A DNA stretch of 44,631 bases, taken from NCBI GenBank assembly GCA_019348555.1, contig JAHWJH010000003.1, positions 1 to 44,631 of the forward strand. Reading direction: 5' to 3'. The translations under genes and the position numbers were made by a program. This document shows, one piece after another, positions 31,954 to 41,792 of this stretch. The notes beneath the pieces are model-generated. The model did no database searches. It was not told where the DNA came from and saw only the letters and a program-made list of their open reading frames with translations. Within the stretch, counting starts at the first letter, position 1. Each line of letters begins with the position of its first letter. Source of the DNA: Actinomycetota bacterium (lineage in GTDB: Bacteria > Actinomycetota > Acidimicrobiia > Acidimicrobiales > CADCSY01).

Positions 31954-32075
31954 GCCGGGGAGCCCCGATCATCCCATTGCCAGCGCACGAACCGTGCGAT
32001 CCGGGCGAACTCGTCGGGCCGGCAGAAAGGCCGGCAGCCGGAAAGGTCAACCGGCGCGGAGGGGTAGGGGGTCGG

Positions 32076-32081
32076 TAGACT
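32076..32081 (+). promoter_or_regulatory. -10-like TAGACT upstream of clpC
   Basis: TAGACT lies 36 nt before the clpC TTG, leaving a ~30-nt leader with the strong Shine-Dalgarno GAGGAGGG (32103-32110). This is a conventional leadered arrangement, unlike many other genes here. No clear CtsR or ClgR operator is visible. Confidence 0.45.
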
Positions 32082-32117
32082 CACAGCACGTAGCGCCCAG
32101 CCGAGGAGGGCGGTTCC

Positions 32118-34618
<2,501 letters not shown>

Positions 34619-36450: not shown

Positions 36451-37344
36451 CTAGGCGCTCTGCGCCGCGGCCGCCGGCGCCTCGGGCTCGGGCTCGGGTG
36501 CCGCCTCCTCCGCCTCGGCCTCGCCGGCCGGTTCCTCACCCGCGGTGGGGTGGCGCCGGCGGGCCTCCCGTGCCTTGGCCACGCTCGCTTCGAGGGCGGC
36601 CATGAGGTCGACCACCCCGGTCTGGGCGGGAGCCGCCTCCGGCACGATCACCGGCTCGCCCTCGGCCTTGCGCTCGATGAGCTCCAGCAGCCGGTCGCGG
36701 TACTCGTCGCGAAAGCGCGCCGGATCGAAGTCGGCCGACAGCGACTCGATGAGCTGGCTGGCCATGACCAGCTCCTTGTCGGACACCTTCACGTCGCGTG
36801 CCGCCGACAGCTCGGATATCTCCTCGGCGGGAGTGACCTCGTCGGCGTAGACCATGGTCGACAACACCAGTGCACCGTCCTTGGCCCGCAGGGCGGCAAG
36901 GTACTGCTTGGTGCGCATGACGAAGCGGGCGATGGCCACCTTGCCCTGCTCCTCCATGGCCCGGACGAGGAGCGCGTAGGGCTTCTCGGCGGTCTTGACC
37001 GGGGCGACGTAGTAGGCGGCGTCGAAGAAGATGGGATCGATGTCGGCCAGATCGATGAACTCCTCGATGTCGATGGTGCGGGTGCCCTCGGGGTCGAGCG
37101 CGTCGAGCTCCGCAGGCTCGAGGAGGACGTAGTGCTCCGGGGACAACTCGTAGCCCTTCACGATCTGTTCGTAGGGCACTTCGGTGCCGTCGGCCGACGA
37201 CACCCGCTTCATCTTGACCCGGGCGCCGGTGCGGGCGTCCATCTGGTGGAACGAGACCCCCTTGCGGGAGACGGCGTTGTAGAGCTTGATGGGGATGTTG
37301 ACCAGCCCGAAGCTGATCGATCCGCTCCAGATCGCTCTCGGCAT
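36451..37344 (-). CDS. ku: Non-homologous end-joining protein Ku
   Basis: This 297-residue DNA-end-binding homodimer recruits the end-joining polymerase and ligase. The family start SGSISFGLVNIPIKLYNAV is followed by VSFHQMD, YELSPEHYVLLEPAELDAL and YVLFARFVMR-type core strands such as VAIARFVMRTKQYLAALR. The C-terminal ~60 residues are Ala/Glu/Pro-rich, unlike the Lys-rich tails of some Ku proteins. A good Shine-Dalgarno GAGGAGGG precedes the ATG. It is transcribed with the polymerase gene and is divergent from the MT0933-like gene. Confidence 0.95.
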   Translation of the reverse strand: MPRAIWSGSISFGLVNIPIKLYNAVSRKGVSFHQMDARTGARVKMKRVSSADGTEVPYEQIVKGYELSPEHYVLLEPAELDALDPEGTRTIDIEEFIDLADIDPIFFDAAYYVAPVKTAEKPYALLVRAMEEQGKVAIARFVMRTKQYLAALRAKDGALVLSTMVYADEVTPAEEISELSAARDVKVSDKELVMASQLIESLSADFDPARFRDEYRDRLLELIERKAEGEPVIVPEAAPAQTGVVDLMAALEASVAKAREARRRHPTAGEEPAGEAEAEEAAPEPEPEAPAAAAQSA

Positions 37345-37489: not shown

Positions 37490-37708
37490 ATGAGCATCAT
37501 CGACAAGATGAAGGGCAAGGCGGGCGAGCTGGCCCGTACCCACGGCGACAAGGTCGCCGGTGGGCTCGACAAGGCCACCGACGCCGTGAACCGCCGCACC
37601 GAGGGCAAGCACGCCGGCAAGCTGGCCGACATCTCCCAGCGGGCCAAGGCGGCGGTGGACGGCCTGGCCGACCAGGACCGTCGGCCGAAGGGCCCCGAGC
37701 AGGTCTAG
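37490..37708 (+). CDS. Small MT0933-like antitoxin family protein
   Basis: This 72-residue charged protein (IIDKMKGKAGELARTHGDK, then AVNRRTEGKHAGKLADISQRAK) resembles the Rv0909/MT0933 antitoxin-like family of actinobacteria. No toxin gene is adjacent, so an antitoxin role here is doubtful; many such genes are orphans. The ATG has GGGAGGT 4-5 nt upstream, and a -10-like TACGGT is at 37454-37459. The stop TAG interlocks with the ligase stop on the other strand in the tetramer CTAG (37705-37708). Confidence 0.8.
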   Translation: MSIIDKMKGKAGELARTHGDKVAGGLDKATDAVNRRTEGKHAGKLADISQRAKAAVDGLADQDRRPKGPEQV

Positions 37709-38685
37709 GAGCGCTTCGTGTCGCCGGCCGCCAGGTCGGCCGGCGACTTGTCGATGCGGGTGCCCTTGTAGGAGGGGTGGCGCAGGATGCCGGCGTCGGT
37801 CCGTTGCCGGTACTCCACGTCCACCACCAGGCGGGGGACGACGAAGACGGCATCCCGCCGAGGGACCGGCCCGGCGAAGGGGCTCGACGGCGTGACGTCA
37901 CCCGCCAGCTCCCGGCCGAGGCGGGCGAGCTCGGCATCGGTGAAGCCGGTGCCGACGGCGCCCACGAAGTCGAGCGCAGCGTCGGACCGGGGCAGGCCGA
38001 GCAGGAGGGCGCCGATGCGCCCGGCGCGGGAGCCCTCTCCGGGCAACCACCCGCCGACCACGAACTCGTCGCGCGCCACGAGCTTGACCTTGACCCAGTC
38101 GCGCGAGCGGGCGCCGGGGATGTACGGGCTGGCCATCCGCTTGGCCACCACGCCCTCGAGGCCCTGGGACCGGGCGGCGGCGAGGGTGTCGTCGCCGGAG
38201 CCGGGGAACGTCGGCGGCGTGGCCCAGAACGGGCCGGCCAGCGCCAGGGACTCGAGAACCGCCCGGCGTTCGGTCCACGGCAGTGCCAACGTGGAGTGCT
38301 CGCCGACGTGCAGGACGTCGAAGGCCAGCCAGCACGCCGGCACCCGGGCTGCCCGCTCGGCGGCGGTTCGCGGGTCGGCCACGTGCATCCGCTCCTGGAG
38401 GTGCTGGAAGCTCGGCACCCCCCGGTCGTCGAAGGCCACGATCTCCCCGTCGAGCACTGCTGCCTGACGGCCCAACGCAGAACCGATCGCCGCCAGCTCG
38501 GGGTAGGCCACGGTGACGTCACGGAGGTTGCGGGTCTCCAGGCGCACGGCGGCCCCGTCCCAGTGCACCACGGCACGGATGCCGTCCCATTTGAGCTCGA
38601 AGGTGAAGTCGGCCTGACTTGCGGGGTCGGGGAGGGGGCCGGCGGTCGCCAGCATGGGAACGACGTGGGGCGGTGGCCCGGCCAT
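37705..38685 (-). CDS. ATP-dependent DNA ligase (LigD/LigC-type, end joining)
   Basis: This 326-residue ligase has the nucleotidyltransferase motifs in order: motif I FELKWDGIRA (catalytic Lys32), motif III WLAFDVLHVG, motif IV EGVVAKRMASPY and motif V RDWVKVKL, then a C-terminal OB-fold. It lacks polymerase and phosphoesterase domains and corresponds to the ligase module of LigD. Its ATG overlaps the stop of the upstream unknown gene (TGATG), so it is translationally coupled to an AAA-VWA-unknown operon. The NHEJ ku-polymerase pair lies just beyond the MT0933-like gene. Confidence 0.92.
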   Translation of the reverse strand: MAGPPPHVVPMLATAGPLPDPASQADFTFELKWDGIRAVVHWDGAAVRLETRNLRDVTVAYPELAAIGSALGRQAAVLDGEIVAFDDRGVPSFQHLQERMHVADPRTAAERAARVPACWLAFDVLHVGEHSTLALPWTERRAVLESLALAGPFWATPPTFPGSGDDTLAAARSQGLEGVVAKRMASPYIPGARSRDWVKVKLVARDEFVVGGWLPGEGSRAGRIGALLLGLPRSDAALDFVGAVGTGFTDAELARLGRELAGDVTPSSPFAGPVPRRDAVFVVPRLVVDVEYRQRTDAGILRHPSYKGTRIDKSPADLAAGDTKRS

Positions 38686-39440
38686 CACGGCTCCCAGGTA
38701 CGGGCCCACGTGCCGTCGGGCCGGCGGGCGAGGGTGACGGTGGCCACCGCCGGGCGCGCTTCGCCACTGGCCAGCGGTTCCCAGCGCACCGCCCGGGCGC
38801 GCAGTGCCCGGTTCGACGGTGCCAGCTCCAGCACCAGGGCGTCGTCGACCACCGCCAGCCCGCGGGCCCAGACCTCCAACACCCACCGCACGCTCAGGGC
38901 GGCGCTCGCGCGAGCGGTGTAGCGGTCGAGCACGCCGACCACCCGGCAAGCCTGGCCGGGGCGCAGGATCTTCACCTCGACCGCGGGGCTCTGCCCGAAG
39001 CCCAGGCGGTCGGCCCAAGCGGCGGTGTGCCGGCGCACCGGCTCGAGCGCCCGCTGCTGCAGCTGGGCCTGCAGCAGCAGCTCGTGGCCCTCGCCGTAGT
39101 AGGACGACGTCCGCCAGGCGCGCTCCCAGGTGAGCAGCAGGCCGAGCTCGTGGGGCGTGGCCAGGGCGCCGGGCCCCAGTAGCTGTTCGTCGCCGAGCCG
39201 CGCCCGCATCTGGGCGAACAGCTCGGTGGAGGTGGCCCACGTGTGGAGCTGGCGCCACTGGACCAGGATGCGCACGCAGGTGGGCGTCTCCGCGCCCATG
39301 GCCCGCATCGTGCGCTCGGCGGCCAGATCGTGGTCCTCGATCACCACCTGGCCCCTCCGCCAGCTCACCCGGTGCTCGGTGCCGCTGCAGGCCACCGTCG
39401 CGGTCACCGGCCTCAGGTGGTCGCACCACCGGGTGGCCAT
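38685..39440 (-). CDS. Unrecognised 251-residue protein between VWA protein and DNA ligase
   Basis: I do not recognise this cytoplasmic protein. It is Arg/Trp-rich and has no signal peptide or membrane segment. Visible segments include SWRRGQVVIEDHDLAAERTM near the N-terminus, CVRILVQWRQLHTW, and a central helical region (LLTWERAWRTSSYYGEGHE, LLLQAQLQQRALEPVRRHTA). The C-terminal half is strand-rich with VLELAPSNRALRARAVRW. The ATG at 39440 lies 19 nt after the VWA stop, and its TGA overlaps the ligase ATG. The context suggests a partner of the AAA/VWA pair or of the ligase; this is inference. Confidence 0.75.
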   Translation of the reverse strand: MATRWCDHLRPVTATVACSGTEHRVSWRRGQVVIEDHDLAAERTMRAMGAETPTCVRILVQWRQLHTWATSTELFAQMRARLGDEQLLGPGALATPHELGLLLTWERAWRTSSYYGEGHELLLQAQLQQRALEPVRRHTAAWADRLGFGQSPAVEVKILRPGQACRVVGVLDRYTARASAALSVRWVLEVWARGLAVVDDALVLELAPSNRALRARAVRWEPLASGEARPAVATVTLARRPDGTWARTWEP

Positions 39441-39459
39441 GTCGCCAGGAGCCCTGCGG

Positions 39460-40707
39460 CTAGGCAGCGGAGTCGACGTGCACCACGCGGGCCCACGTCG
39501 GCGTGGCCCACACCTGGCCCCCACCGGTGGCGCCGGGGGCACCCACGAGGCCGACGACCACCTCCATGCCCTTGGGCGGCTCGGCCGGCCACGGGGTCAT
39601 GCCGTCGGTCAGCACCACCAGGACCGAAGGCCGGGGGCGCAGCCGGGTGGCGGTCTCGATGCCGACGGCCATGTCGGTGCCGCCCCCGCCCACCAGCTCG
39701 ACGAGCGAGGCGCTGGTCACCCGGCGGGTCGTGTGCACGGCGGCGTCGACGGCGAGCACCCGCAGGCTCGAGCGGCCGACGCCGACGCCACGCAGCAGTC
39801 CCTCCACCTCGGCCAGCACCCGGGCCAGGTCGTCGGCGGTCATGCTGCCCGAGGTGTCGCACAGCACGGCGACCTCGGGCACCGGGCGCTCGAGCGCCGG
39901 GAGCACCACGTCGGGGCTCGAGCCGGCGCGCCGCGACGGCCGGCGGTAGCTGTAGTCGGCCCGGCCGGCCACCGTCGTGATGCCCTTGCGGATCTCGGCG
40001 GCCAGCACCCGGCGCCAGTCGACCCGGGGATCGAGGCGCTCCTCGGCCCACCGCTGCCACCCTGTGGCCACCCGCCCGCGGCCCCCCTTGGCGTAGTCGA
40101 TCACCCGGCTGGCGGTCTGGCAGGCCAGCAGCTCCCGCTCGCCGGGGGGCAGGCCACCGCCGGCGTCGCCGGCCAGCTCCCAGGGACGGGGTTGGGCGTC
40201 GGCACCGCTACCGCAGTCGGGATAGTCGGGGTGGTCGGGCATGTGGAAGTTCCCGAGGCGGAGGTACTCCTCGGCCAGGTGGCCCCGCTCACAGCCCAGG
40301 ACGTCGGGCAGCACCACCTCGCCCGGTAGGCGCAGGTCGGCGTGGAGAAGGTCGTCGTTGATCTCGGCATCGGCGGCCAGCGCCCAGTCCCCGGCCCGGG
40401 CGTGGTCGACGCCCAGGCTGCGGGCCCGGCCGGCATGGTCTCGCAGCAGGTGGCCGGTGTGGTGGACCATCAGGCTGCCGAGCTCGGCCACCGTCCAGGT
40501 GTCGACGACGTCAGGGTCGACGTAGAGACGCCACGCCTCGTCGACCGACGCACCGCCCAGCCCGGGGACCGCCACCACCGTCGAGGCGAACAACGCCGAC
40601 GCCAGGTAGGGATGCCGAGCCGCCGCCCACAGGCGAGCCGAGGCCACCTTGTGGGCGTCGAGGGGCGTGGTGTCGGGCTCGCCGGGGCGCTGCGCAGGAA
40701 CGGTCAC
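39460..40707 (-). CDS. VWA-domain protein with N-terminal metallopeptidase-like (DUF2201) region
   Basis: This 415-residue protein has an N-terminal region with SLMVHHTGHLLRDH, an HHxxH-type motif typical of DUF2201 putative metallopeptidase domains, and a C-terminal von Willebrand A-like domain (~residues 275-415). The VWA MIDAS is intact: DTSGS in AVLCDTSGSMTADD, the GGGTDM Thr and the LTDGM Asp. Such proteins pair with MoxR-type AAA ATPases as chaperone or metal-insertion modules. The GTG overlaps the AAA stop by 4 nt (GTGA). No signal peptide is present. Confidence 0.85.
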   Translation of the reverse strand: MTVPAQRPGEPDTTPLDAHKVASARLWAAARHPYLASALFASTVVAVPGLGGASVDEAWRLYVDPDVVDTWTVAELGSLMVHHTGHLLRDHAGRARSLGVDHARAGDWALAADAEINDDLLHADLRLPGEVVLPDVLGCERGHLAEEYLRLGNFHMPDHPDYPDCGSGADAQPRPWELAGDAGGGLPPGERELLACQTASRVIDYAKGGRGRVATGWQRWAEERLDPRVDWRRVLAAEIRKGITTVAGRADYSYRRPSRRAGSSPDVVLPALERPVPEVAVLCDTSGSMTADDLARVLAEVEGLLRGVGVGRSSLRVLAVDAAVHTTRRVTSASLVELVGGGGTDMAVGIETATRLRPRPSVLVVLTDGMTPWPAEPPKGMEVVVGLVGAPGATGGGQVWATPTWARVVHVDSAA

Positions 40708-41792
40708 ATCAGTCCGGCGTCTTTGAGGAGGGGGGCGAAGAGCTTGACCTCGGCCGGGGCCACGGCGGCCGGCGGGCGGCACCGGGCCAGGGTGCGGGCG
40801 GCCACGGCGGCGACGTCAGGCGTGTGGGCGCCCACCTTGGCCACCACCTTCCAGCCTGCCTGCCATCGGTCGACCGTCGGTCGTGCGGCCACGGCGGCGG
40901 CGACGGCGGACAGGGCGGCATAGGCCCGGTCGCCGCGCTCGGGTACGACGAAGAGGTCGGGCTGGGCCAGGACCGTTTCGGGGTCGGGCAGGTCCATCTC
41001 CTCCTGCCAGAGGAGGAACTCGGTGCCCGGGCCCTGGCCGACCGCCCCGTTCACCAGGGCGGTCGTCACGGCCCGGCCGGCGCCGACGACCCTGGAGGCG
41101 CACGAGAGTCGGGCCGCCATCTCCCAGGTGCGCGGGCTGGGCCAGCCCCGCCCCGCACGGGCGGCGTCGGTCGGCAGGGCGCAGGTGAGCCCGGGGCGTA
41201 CCGACACGAACGCCGACACCATGGCCCGCTCCGCCGCCAGCGCGTCCTGCCAGCCCTCGGGAAGCACGGGGATCACCGGCGCCGGCCATCCACCGACGAT
41301 GCCCTGGGCGAAGACGGCGGCGTCGACCTCCCAGTCGAGGTGGCAGAACCGGTTGGCCAGCGGCGCCGACAGGTCCCAGCCGTCGGCCGCCTGTTCGGGA
41401 GGGTTGGCGGCGGCCACCACGACGACGTCGTCGGGCAGGTCGAGGTCGCCCACCACCCGCTCGAGGACCACGCGCAGCAGCGCCGCCTGCACGGCCGGCG
41501 GCGCGGTGGAGATCTCGTCGAGGAACAGCAGGCCTCGCCCGCTGTCGGCCAGTCGCTCCGCCCACCGCGGCGGCGCGAAGTGCACCACCCCACCGATGAC
41601 CACCGGTAGCCCCGAGAAGTCGGACGGCTCCCGGATGGCGGCGATCACCGTCTCGCACGGCCACCCGGCGGCGTCGGCCATGGCGCGGATGGCCGAGGTC
41701 TTCCCCGTGCCCGGCGCACCCCACAGCAGCACGGGGACACCGGCGGCCACGGCCACTCCGAGGGCCTGGACCGTCGTCTCCTGCCCGCTCAC
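40704..41792 (-). CDS. MoxR-type AAA ATPase
   Basis: This 362-residue AAA+ protein has the Walker A LWGAPGTGKTSAI (residues ~24-36), Walker B GLLFLDEIS and the sensor-like VVAAANPPEQ. MoxR ATPases work with VWA proteins to remodel or activate client proteins. It is the first gene of the operon that continues with the VWA protein, the 251-residue protein and the DNA ligase. The GTG start at 41792 is preceded by TAGGGT at a 6-nt spacing and no Shine-Dalgarno, so the operon mRNA is probably leaderless. Confidence 0.9.
   Translation of the reverse strand: MSGQETTVQALGVAVAAGVPVLLWGAPGTGKTSAIRAMADAAGWPCETVIAAIREPSDFSGLPVVIGGVVHFAPPRWAERLADSGRGLLFLDEISTAPPAVQAALLRVVLERVVGDLDLPDDVVVVAAANPPEQAADGWDLSAPLANRFCHLDWEVDAAVFAQGIVGGWPAPVIPVLPEGWQDALAAERAMVSAFVSVRPGLTCALPTDAARAGRGWPSPRTWEMAARLSCASRVVGAGRAVTTALVNGAVGQGPGTEFLLWQEEMDLPDPETVLAQPDLFVVPERGDRAYAALSAVAAAVAARPTVDRWQAGWKVVAKVGAHTPDVAAVAARTLARCRPPAAVAPAEVKLFAPLLKDAGLM

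What the first reader, a model, noticed from the sequence alone, without database searches (positions are those of the whole stretch)
37705..41792. End-joining ligase coupled to an AAA-VWA-unknown module next to Ku and a stand-alone polymerase
Seen: four minus-strand genes (MoxR-type AAA, VWA/DUF2201-like, 251-residue unknown, ATP-dependent ligase) are joined by a 4-nt overlap, a 19-nt gap and a 1-nt overlap. ku and the LigD-type polymerase lie immediately beyond. Known: MoxR-VWA pairs remodel client proteins, and bacterial NHEJ normally needs only Ku and LigD. Inference: the AAA-VWA pair and the unknown protein may load, remodel or release end-joining proteins, or form a DNA-damage or defence module that recruits the ligase.
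Basis: partly seen in the sequence, partly recalled or inferred. Interest (0 to 1): 0.7.

Follow-up and report, generated by a model that had tools for sequence, protein, structure and literature searches.

The report
Remodelling ATPase cassette joined to ligase
Three adjacent genes that likely encode an ATP-powered protein-remodelling machine, present in many actinobacteria, run directly into a DNA end-joining ligase gene in one bacterial family, where that ligase appears to have been swapped for distantly related versions at least twice while its place was kept; the machine itself is probably not devoted to end joining.

Summary
The gene row is real: MoxR-type AAA, VWA/DUF2201, a 251-residue protein (here UNK) and an NHEJ-type ligase, joined by a 4-nt overlap, a 19-nt gap and a 1-nt overlap. 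One correction: an opposite-strand antitoxin-like gene lies between ligase and ku. AAA-VWA-UNK is a unit of its own. Of 30 loci read with the three in a row, a ligase follows UNK in 5, all in the window's family f1 (a sixth f1 contig ends at UNK), and in none of 24 loci from 11 other families. In f59, seven genomes hold VWA and UNK on separate contigs and have no Ku and no NHEJ ligase. Yet inside f1 the link is striking: trees show three ligase lineages in one slot, two nearest to other families' ligases, while VWA, UNK, Ku and Pol stay family-native. All 29 in-a-row cassette genomes tested also have Ku. I conclude: a MoxR-VWA module with an undescribed third subunit (no Pfam/NCBIfam/PADLOC match, no confident PDB fold match), to which f1 attached its end-joining ligase, likely for co-expression. 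A dedicated end-joining remodeller stays possible but unlikely.

The parts
40704..41792 (-). MoxR-type AAA+ ATPase, 362 aa (GTG start)
   Evidence: Pfam AAA_5 E 1.7e-08 and related AAA models; Walker A GAPGTGKTS and Walker B LLFLDE read, nearly invariant in 27 aligned sequences
39460..40707 (-). VWA-like protein, DUF2201_N + DUF2201, 415 aa (GTG start)
   Evidence: PF13203 E 7.7e-28, PF09967 E 2.2e-20; MIDAS-type residues (recalled motif) D284, S286, S288, T344, D368 invariant in 28 aligned sequences; the HExxH position of the N-domain reads HHTGH here
38685..39440 (-). UNK, undescribed 251-aa third component
   Evidence: no Pfam, NCBIfam or PADLOC match; 129 homologues at E 0.001; model pLDDT 93; C18, H37, C55 in 32 of 32 and H23 in 31 of 32 aligned members
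37705..38685 (-). stand-alone NHEJ-type ATP-dependent DNA ligase, 326 aa
   Evidence: TIGR02779 247.4 bits; nearest solved relative by sequence 1vs0 (Rv0938, M. tuberculosis) E 2.2e-61
37490..37708 (+). MT0933-type antitoxin-like ORF on the other strand, between ligase and ku (not part of the cassette)
   Evidence: PF14013 E 7.6e-12
36451..37344 (-). Ku
   Evidence: TIGR02772 314.6 bits
35527..36438 (-). stand-alone LigD-type primase-polymerase
   Evidence: PF21686 E 1.2e-83; TIGR02778 274.2 bits

Best explanation
AAA, VWA and UNK are encoded together as a three-gene cassette that recurs across Actinomycetota and likely works as one ATP-driven protein-remodelling machine, and in family f1 its gene row runs on into a DNA end-joining ligase gene, which likely ties the two together in expression rather than making the machine a dedicated repair factor. 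Proposed mechanism (inferred from known MoxR-VWA pairs): a MoxR ring hydrolyses ATP; the VWA protein holds a client through its metal-dependent (MIDAS) site; UNK, with a predicted Cys/His metal site in its N-terminal domain, is the fixed third subunit or client adaptor; the ring then remodels or releases the client. The client is unknown. Shown: gene order, families, recurrence of the three genes, ligase adjacency seen only in f1, and discordant gene trees in the ligase slot. Inferred: physical complex, metal binding, one transcript, co-expression as the reason the slot is kept.
For: (1) AAA-VWA-UNK in a row on one strand in 30 loci of 12 families, window included (strands checked again); in four Streptomyces-like genomes the UNK N-terminal domain is in the gene just upstream of AAA-VWA (4 of 4 fetched loci). 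(2) Ligase directly after UNK only in f1: 5 of 5 f1 loci with enough sequence beyond UNK, 0 of 24 elsewhere (1.4-11.4 kb read downstream of UNK). (3) f1 genera without the cassette keep ligase with ku (G004, G005, G009, G010) or ku-pol without a ligase over the TIGR02779 cut-off (G006) in other surroundings, so cassette and end-joining genes are separable. (4) Ligase slot: window and G008 carry the f1-native ligase (76% identical); G001's is 66% identical to f29 ligases and 42% to the window's, G002's is 74% identical to G001's; G003's groups with an f10 ligase (100/99, 100/100); Ku and Pol stay f1-native and VWA and UNK follow the family. (5) Coupled junctions with native and swapped ligases alike: GTGA 4-nt overlap in G008 and in G001. 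(6) AAA-VWA-UNK-ligase keeps together although the upstream genes differ between genus g1 (LppM/RadA) and g6 (metallophosphatase).
Against: All 29 in-a-row cassette genomes tested have Ku (15 of 15 against 48 of 83 others in the 98-genome set, Fisher p 7e-4, size-adjusted family-level permutation p 0.015), which a purely incidental link does not predict. In 4 of 5 f29 genomes ligase and ku lie 16-27 kb downstream of the cassette on the same contig and strand (G039, G088, G124, G244; in G280 they are on another contig), and in G533 a LigD-type polymerase is the second gene upstream of AAA. The co-expression part has no expression data; G003 has a 51-nt gap before the ligase and G002 no overlapping ATG or GTG start.
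Confidence: 0.6

Rival explanations
1. The cassette is an end-joining remodeller: the MoxR ring with VWA and UNK loads, remodels or strips Ku or the ligase at DNA ends.
For: Ligase slot kept through at least two inferred ligase replacements; 29 of 29 in-a-row cassette genomes have Ku; in G002 the ligase stays beside UNK although ku and pol are not beside it; f29 and G533 proximity.
Against: 24 of 24 cassettes read outside f1 lack ligase and ku in the stretch read; f59: 7 of 8 genomes keep VWA and UNK (unlinked), 0 of 8 have Ku or an NHEJ ligase match; G096 and G081 have AAA-VWA without Ku. Ligases from three lineages sit in the slot, so no co-adapted ligase interface is evident.
Confidence: 0.12
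2. Plain neighbourhood: the cassette came to lie beside the f1 end-joining genes by rearrangement, there is no functional or regulatory link, and the ligase swaps are ordinary gene exchange in the end-joining row.
For: Adjacency seen in one family only; end-joining genes are known to move horizontally and NHEJ goes with large genomes, a confounder of the Ku correlation (PMC7719229, abstract and passages seen).
Against: Re-created tight junction with a foreign ligase in G001; adjacency in 5 of 5 informative f1 loci while ku and pol are no longer beside it in G002 and ku not in G003; different upstream context with the unit intact.
Confidence: 0.2
3. A conflict or defence module in which the ligase is a recruited effector.
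For: Other MoxR-vWA three-part systems were proposed as conflict systems (PMC7159879, passages seen); relatives of the VWA protein are on 65 plasmid records, mostly actinobacterial.
Against: No PADLOC match for VWA, UNK or ligase and only weak generic AAA matches; no effector domain at the VWA C-terminus (DUF2201 ends at residue 411 of 415); the neighbours I picked in other families are mixed metabolic and housekeeping genes (30 proteins).
Confidence: 0.05

Closest known systems
MoxR AAA+ / VWA chaperone pairs (RavA-ViaA, NorQ-NorD; search listings and abstract starts seen)
   Same: Adjacent MoxR-type ATPase and VWA protein with intact Walker and MIDAS-type residues
   Different: Here the VWA protein is of the DUF2201 type with a metallopeptidase-like N-domain, and a fixed third protein without known relatives follows; client unknown
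MoxR-vWA-centric ternary systems of Kaur et al. 2020 (PMC7159879; passages seen)
   Same: Three-part organisation around MoxR and vWA
   Different: Their third parts are VMAP, inactive STAND, FtsH or a beta-propeller, with effector domains fused to vWA in many; Pfam shows no such domain in UNK or at the VWA C-terminus; VMAP itself was not tested
Bacterial NHEJ gene sets with separate Ku, ligase and polymerase genes (Streptomyces, archaea; PMC5124664, passages seen)
   Same: Stand-alone LigD-type ligase and polymerase genes near ku
   Different: Here the ligase gene continues the gene row of a MoxR-VWA cassette and is exchanged in place between relatives
p97/Cdc48 extraction of Ku in eukaryotes (search listing only)
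   Same: An AAA+ machine acting on end-joining proteins is the analogy behind the novel reading
   Different: Different AAA+ clade and no ubiquitin system (recalled); no evidence here of action on Ku

Membership tests
NHEJ-type DNA ligase (LigD ligase domain) | Match over the curated cut-off of TIGR02779 | tested here: met
   247.4 bits against 227.75; the swapped G001 and G002 ligases score just below it (217.2, 222.5), G003 above (234)
NHEJ-type DNA ligase (LigD ligase domain) | Nucleotidyltransferase lysine motif KxDG (motif recalled) | tested here: met
   ELKWDGIR in the window, EPKLDGQR in G001/G002, EPKWDGVR in G003
Multidomain LigD | Ligase, polymerase and nuclease domains in one protein | tested here: not met
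   Ligase and polymerase are separate genes
MoxR-VWA chaperone pair | Adjacent MoxR-type AAA and VWA genes with Walker A/B and MIDAS residues | tested here: met
MoxR-VWA chaperone pair | ATP-dependent complex acting on a client | not testable with these tools
   needs biochemistry
MoxR-vWA ternary conflict systems (Kaur et al. 2020) | Third component is VMAP, iSTAND, FtsH or beta-propeller | tested here: inconclusive
   UNK has no Pfam match at E 1; VMAP itself was not profile-tested
MoxR-vWA ternary conflict systems (Kaur et al. 2020) | Effector domain fused to vWA C-terminus | tested here: not met
   DUF2201 reaches residue 411 of 415
DUF2201_N putative metallopeptidase | HExxH with catalytic Glu (motif recalled) | tested here: not met
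   HHTGH in the window; Glu present in 1 of 28 aligned cassette sequences (L072), absent in G533, G417, G402; present in 4 Streptomyces-like loci and 4 plasmid sequences; two Rhodococcus plasmid sequences did not fit the pattern and stay undecided
Known anti-phage defence systems | PADLOC-DB model match | tested here: inconclusive
   None for VWA, UNK, ligase; only weak generic matches for AAA

The most novel reading that the evidence does not exclude
AAA-VWA-UNK is a bacterial counterpart of p97: an ATP-driven machine that clears or recycles Ku and ligase from joined DNA ends, with UNK as the adaptor; family f1 has wired it directly to whatever end-joining ligase it currently uses, and the other actinobacteria in which the three genes stay together keep it unlinked but alongside Ku.
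Probability: 0.08. Interest if true: 0.85.

Novelty: new variant of a known kind. Interest (0 to 1): 0.5.

Why it matters
It defines an undescribed third partner for an uncharacterised actinobacterial MoxR-VWA (DUF2201) pair, with a confident structure model and a clear candidate metal site to test, and with a related layout in Streptomyces, which is tractable. It also gives a rare natural experiment: one operon slot after UNK filled by three different end-joining ligase lineages, which makes the question of whether a remodelling ATPase assists or regulates bacterial end joining directly testable.
Full report
Observation. The gene row is as described: AAA 40704-41792, VWA 39460-40707, UNK 38685-39440, ligase 37705-38685, all on the minus strand, with a 4-nt overlap, a 19-nt gap and a 1-nt overlap. 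Families. One correction: between ligase and ku (360 nt) lies an opposite-strand antitoxin-like ORF (37490-37708; PF14013). In G001 no such ORF was matched and ligase, ku and pol follow closely on one strand.

UNK is a real family. 129 homologues at E 0.001; none of the 120 listed has a precomputed Pfam domain. It has no Pfam, NCBIfam or PADLOC match. AlphaFold2 model on 108 sequences: pLDDT 93, pTM 0.88, a beta hairpin plus strand, five helices, then a beta-rich C-terminal part. C18, H37 and C55 are in 32 of 32 and H23 in 31 of 32 aligned members; in the 108-row alignment H37 and C55 are invariant and C18 and H23 at 90% or more. I propose a C-H-H-C metal site (inferred). No confident solved relative by fold or sequence.

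The cassette stands by itself. Neighbourhoods (strands and flanks checked) show AAA-VWA-UNK in a row on one strand in 30 loci: f1 G000 (window), G001, G002, G003, G008, G011; and 24 loci in 11 other families (f8 G018; f10 G020, G076, G113, G144, G170; f17 G339, G355; f24 G034; f29 G039, G088, G124, G244, G280; f30 G089; f40 G050, G130, G160, G185; f47 G100; f72 G402, G417; f102 G533; a Solirubrobacteraceae MAG, L054). Not counted: G046 (VWA-UNK, contig ends), G376 (UNK on the opposite strand beside AAA-VWA), G194 and G209 (UNK near a contig edge, no VWA match in the genome), and UNK copies without AAA-VWA (G040, f59, and further copies in several genomes). A ligase follows UNK in 5 (G000, G001, G002, G003, G008); G011's contig ends 174 bases past UNK. 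In the other 24 no ligase (three query ligases) and no Ku matched in the stretch read, which runs 1.4-11.4 kb downstream of UNK and 0-6.7 kb upstream of AAA; three have under 3 kb downstream (G050, G185, G280). The only end-joining match there is a LigD-type polymerase in G533, the second gene upstream of AAA. In four Streptomyces-like genomes (unnamed G445, G498, G556, G707; nearest named plasmid matches are Streptomyces and Embleya) the UNK N-terminal domain lies in the gene just upstream of AAA-VWA, and the same layout is annotated on two Streptomyces plasmids read.

Frequency. UNK was found in 17 of 98 relatives, 40 of 397 genomes of the order, 6 of 12 of the family and 8 of 396 of the phylum sample. 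VWA was found in 18 of 98, Ku in 63 of 98, and the NHEJ ligase profile at E 0.001 in 67 of 98, over its cut-off in 42 (matches below the cut-off include other ATP-dependent ligases).

Is Ku tied to it? In the 98 genomes, 15 of 15 with a linked cassette (G046 included) have Ku against 48 of 83 others; Fisher p 7e-4; adjusted for genome size and permuted by family, p 0.015. With VWA presence alone the figure is 16 of 18 against 47 of 80, p 0.012. G034's Ku is only a 53-position partial match. Outside the 98, 12 of 12 in-a-row genomes of the order and 3 of 3 from other families have Ku, so 29 of 29 in-a-row genomes tested (14 + 12 + 3; L054 not tested). Against: the 8 f59 genomes with a stand-alone UNK have no Ku and no NHEJ ligase match, although 7 of the 8 have the VWA gene on another contig; G096 (AAA-VWA, UNK elsewhere) and G081 (AAA-VWA, no UNK) lack Ku. 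So the module can live without end joining. Published work ties NHEJ to large genomes (PMC7719229, abstract and passages seen), a confounder.

The ligase slot. Identities: the window ligase is 76% identical to G008's and 56-63% to those of f1 genomes without the cassette (G005, G009 partial, G010), but 42-46% to G001, G002 and G003; G001 is 66% identical to the f29 ligases of G039 and G088 and 74% to G002. Trees: the window groups with G005 (100/97), G001/G002 fall in a clade with f29 ligases and one f41 ligase (100/100), and G003 pairs with G144 of f10 (100/99). Ku (G000, G001) and Pol (G000, G001, G003) stay in f1 clades, the Pol tree leaving G010 open. VWA joins the six f1 cassettes (100/99) with G001 and G003 as sisters (100/98). 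With 11 metagenome pairs added (inferred from equal contig lengths), lineage A holds the window, G008 and five pairs, lineage B G001, G002 and six pairs, lineage C G003. In the UNK tree the B and C cassettes form one group (98/96) with G003 inside it (the fragment P0119 was left out). The simplest history is A to B once and B to C once, with a possible further exchange in one metagenome contig (11328). Junctions: 4-nt GTGA overlap in G001 and G008; 1 or 4 nt in the window; G002 has no ATG or GTG overlapping (first ATG 23 nt on; a CTG would overlap by 4); G003 has a 51-nt gap. In G002 ku and pol are not beside the ligase; in G003 ku is not; both have a Ku elsewhere.

Other f1 genomes. Without the cassette, G004, G005, G009 and G010 have ligase beside ku, and G006 has ku-pol. 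In f29, ligase and ku lie 16-27 kb downstream of the cassette on the same contig and strand in 4 of 5 genomes; in G280 they are on another contig. In f10's G170 they are about 520 kb apart.

Reading. Selection seems to keep a ligase after UNK in f1, but the exchange of ligase lineages argues against a finely fitted ligase-UNK interface and fits co-expression better. The module itself is wider and separable from end joining. I therefore propose a MoxR-VWA machine with UNK as third subunit, client unknown, whose gene row in f1 was extended by the end-joining ligase.

A side result. In cassettes with a separate UNK the HExxH motif of DUF2201_N has lost its Glu (HHTGH in the window; Glu kept in 1 of 28 aligned, L072; lost also in G533, G417, G402), while four Streptomyces-like loci and four plasmid sequences (two Streptomyces, Mycolicibacterium, Xylanimonas) keep HExxH. 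The peptidase-like site is thus likely not catalytic here.

Noticed in passing
39460-40707: Metallopeptidase-like motif of DUF2201_N reads HHTGH instead of HExxH; Glu lost in 27 of 28 aligned cassettes with a separate UNK but kept in Streptomyces-, Mycolicibacterium- and Xylanimonas-type relatives (Rhodococcus undecided).
   Followed up: partly
31994-34618: clpC reads as two overlapping ORFs in different frames (32118-32495 and 31994-34618), an apparent frameshift, natural or from assembly; described only.
   Followed up: no
37490-37708 (+): MT0933-type antitoxin-like ORF, tail to tail with the ligase gene; I did not look for a partner toxin.
   Followed up: no
L086, L087, L088, L091, L093: A Ku about 53-57% identical to the window Ku sits away from the cassette in G001, G002, G003, G008 and G011; in G002 (L086) the gene beside it is a prolyl-oligopeptidase-type peptidase.
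   Followed up: partly
L066-L070, L075-L077: Family f59 keeps UNK as a stand-alone gene in a conserved spot, convergent with a 221-228 aa gene, on a different contig from VWA in the 7 genomes where VWA was found.
   Followed up: partly
L107 6132-8691: Three tandem, divergent UNK copies after AAA-VWA in G402.
   Followed up: no
L099 6393-8182: A second UNK of G533 overlaps by 4 nt the end of a DNA polymerase III delta (holA) gene.
   Followed up: no
L132-L135: Four actinobacterial plasmids carry AAA-VWA with a shared set of other companions: a 60-65 aa protein, a ~390 aa hypothetical protein and a second AAA-family ATPase.
   Followed up: partly
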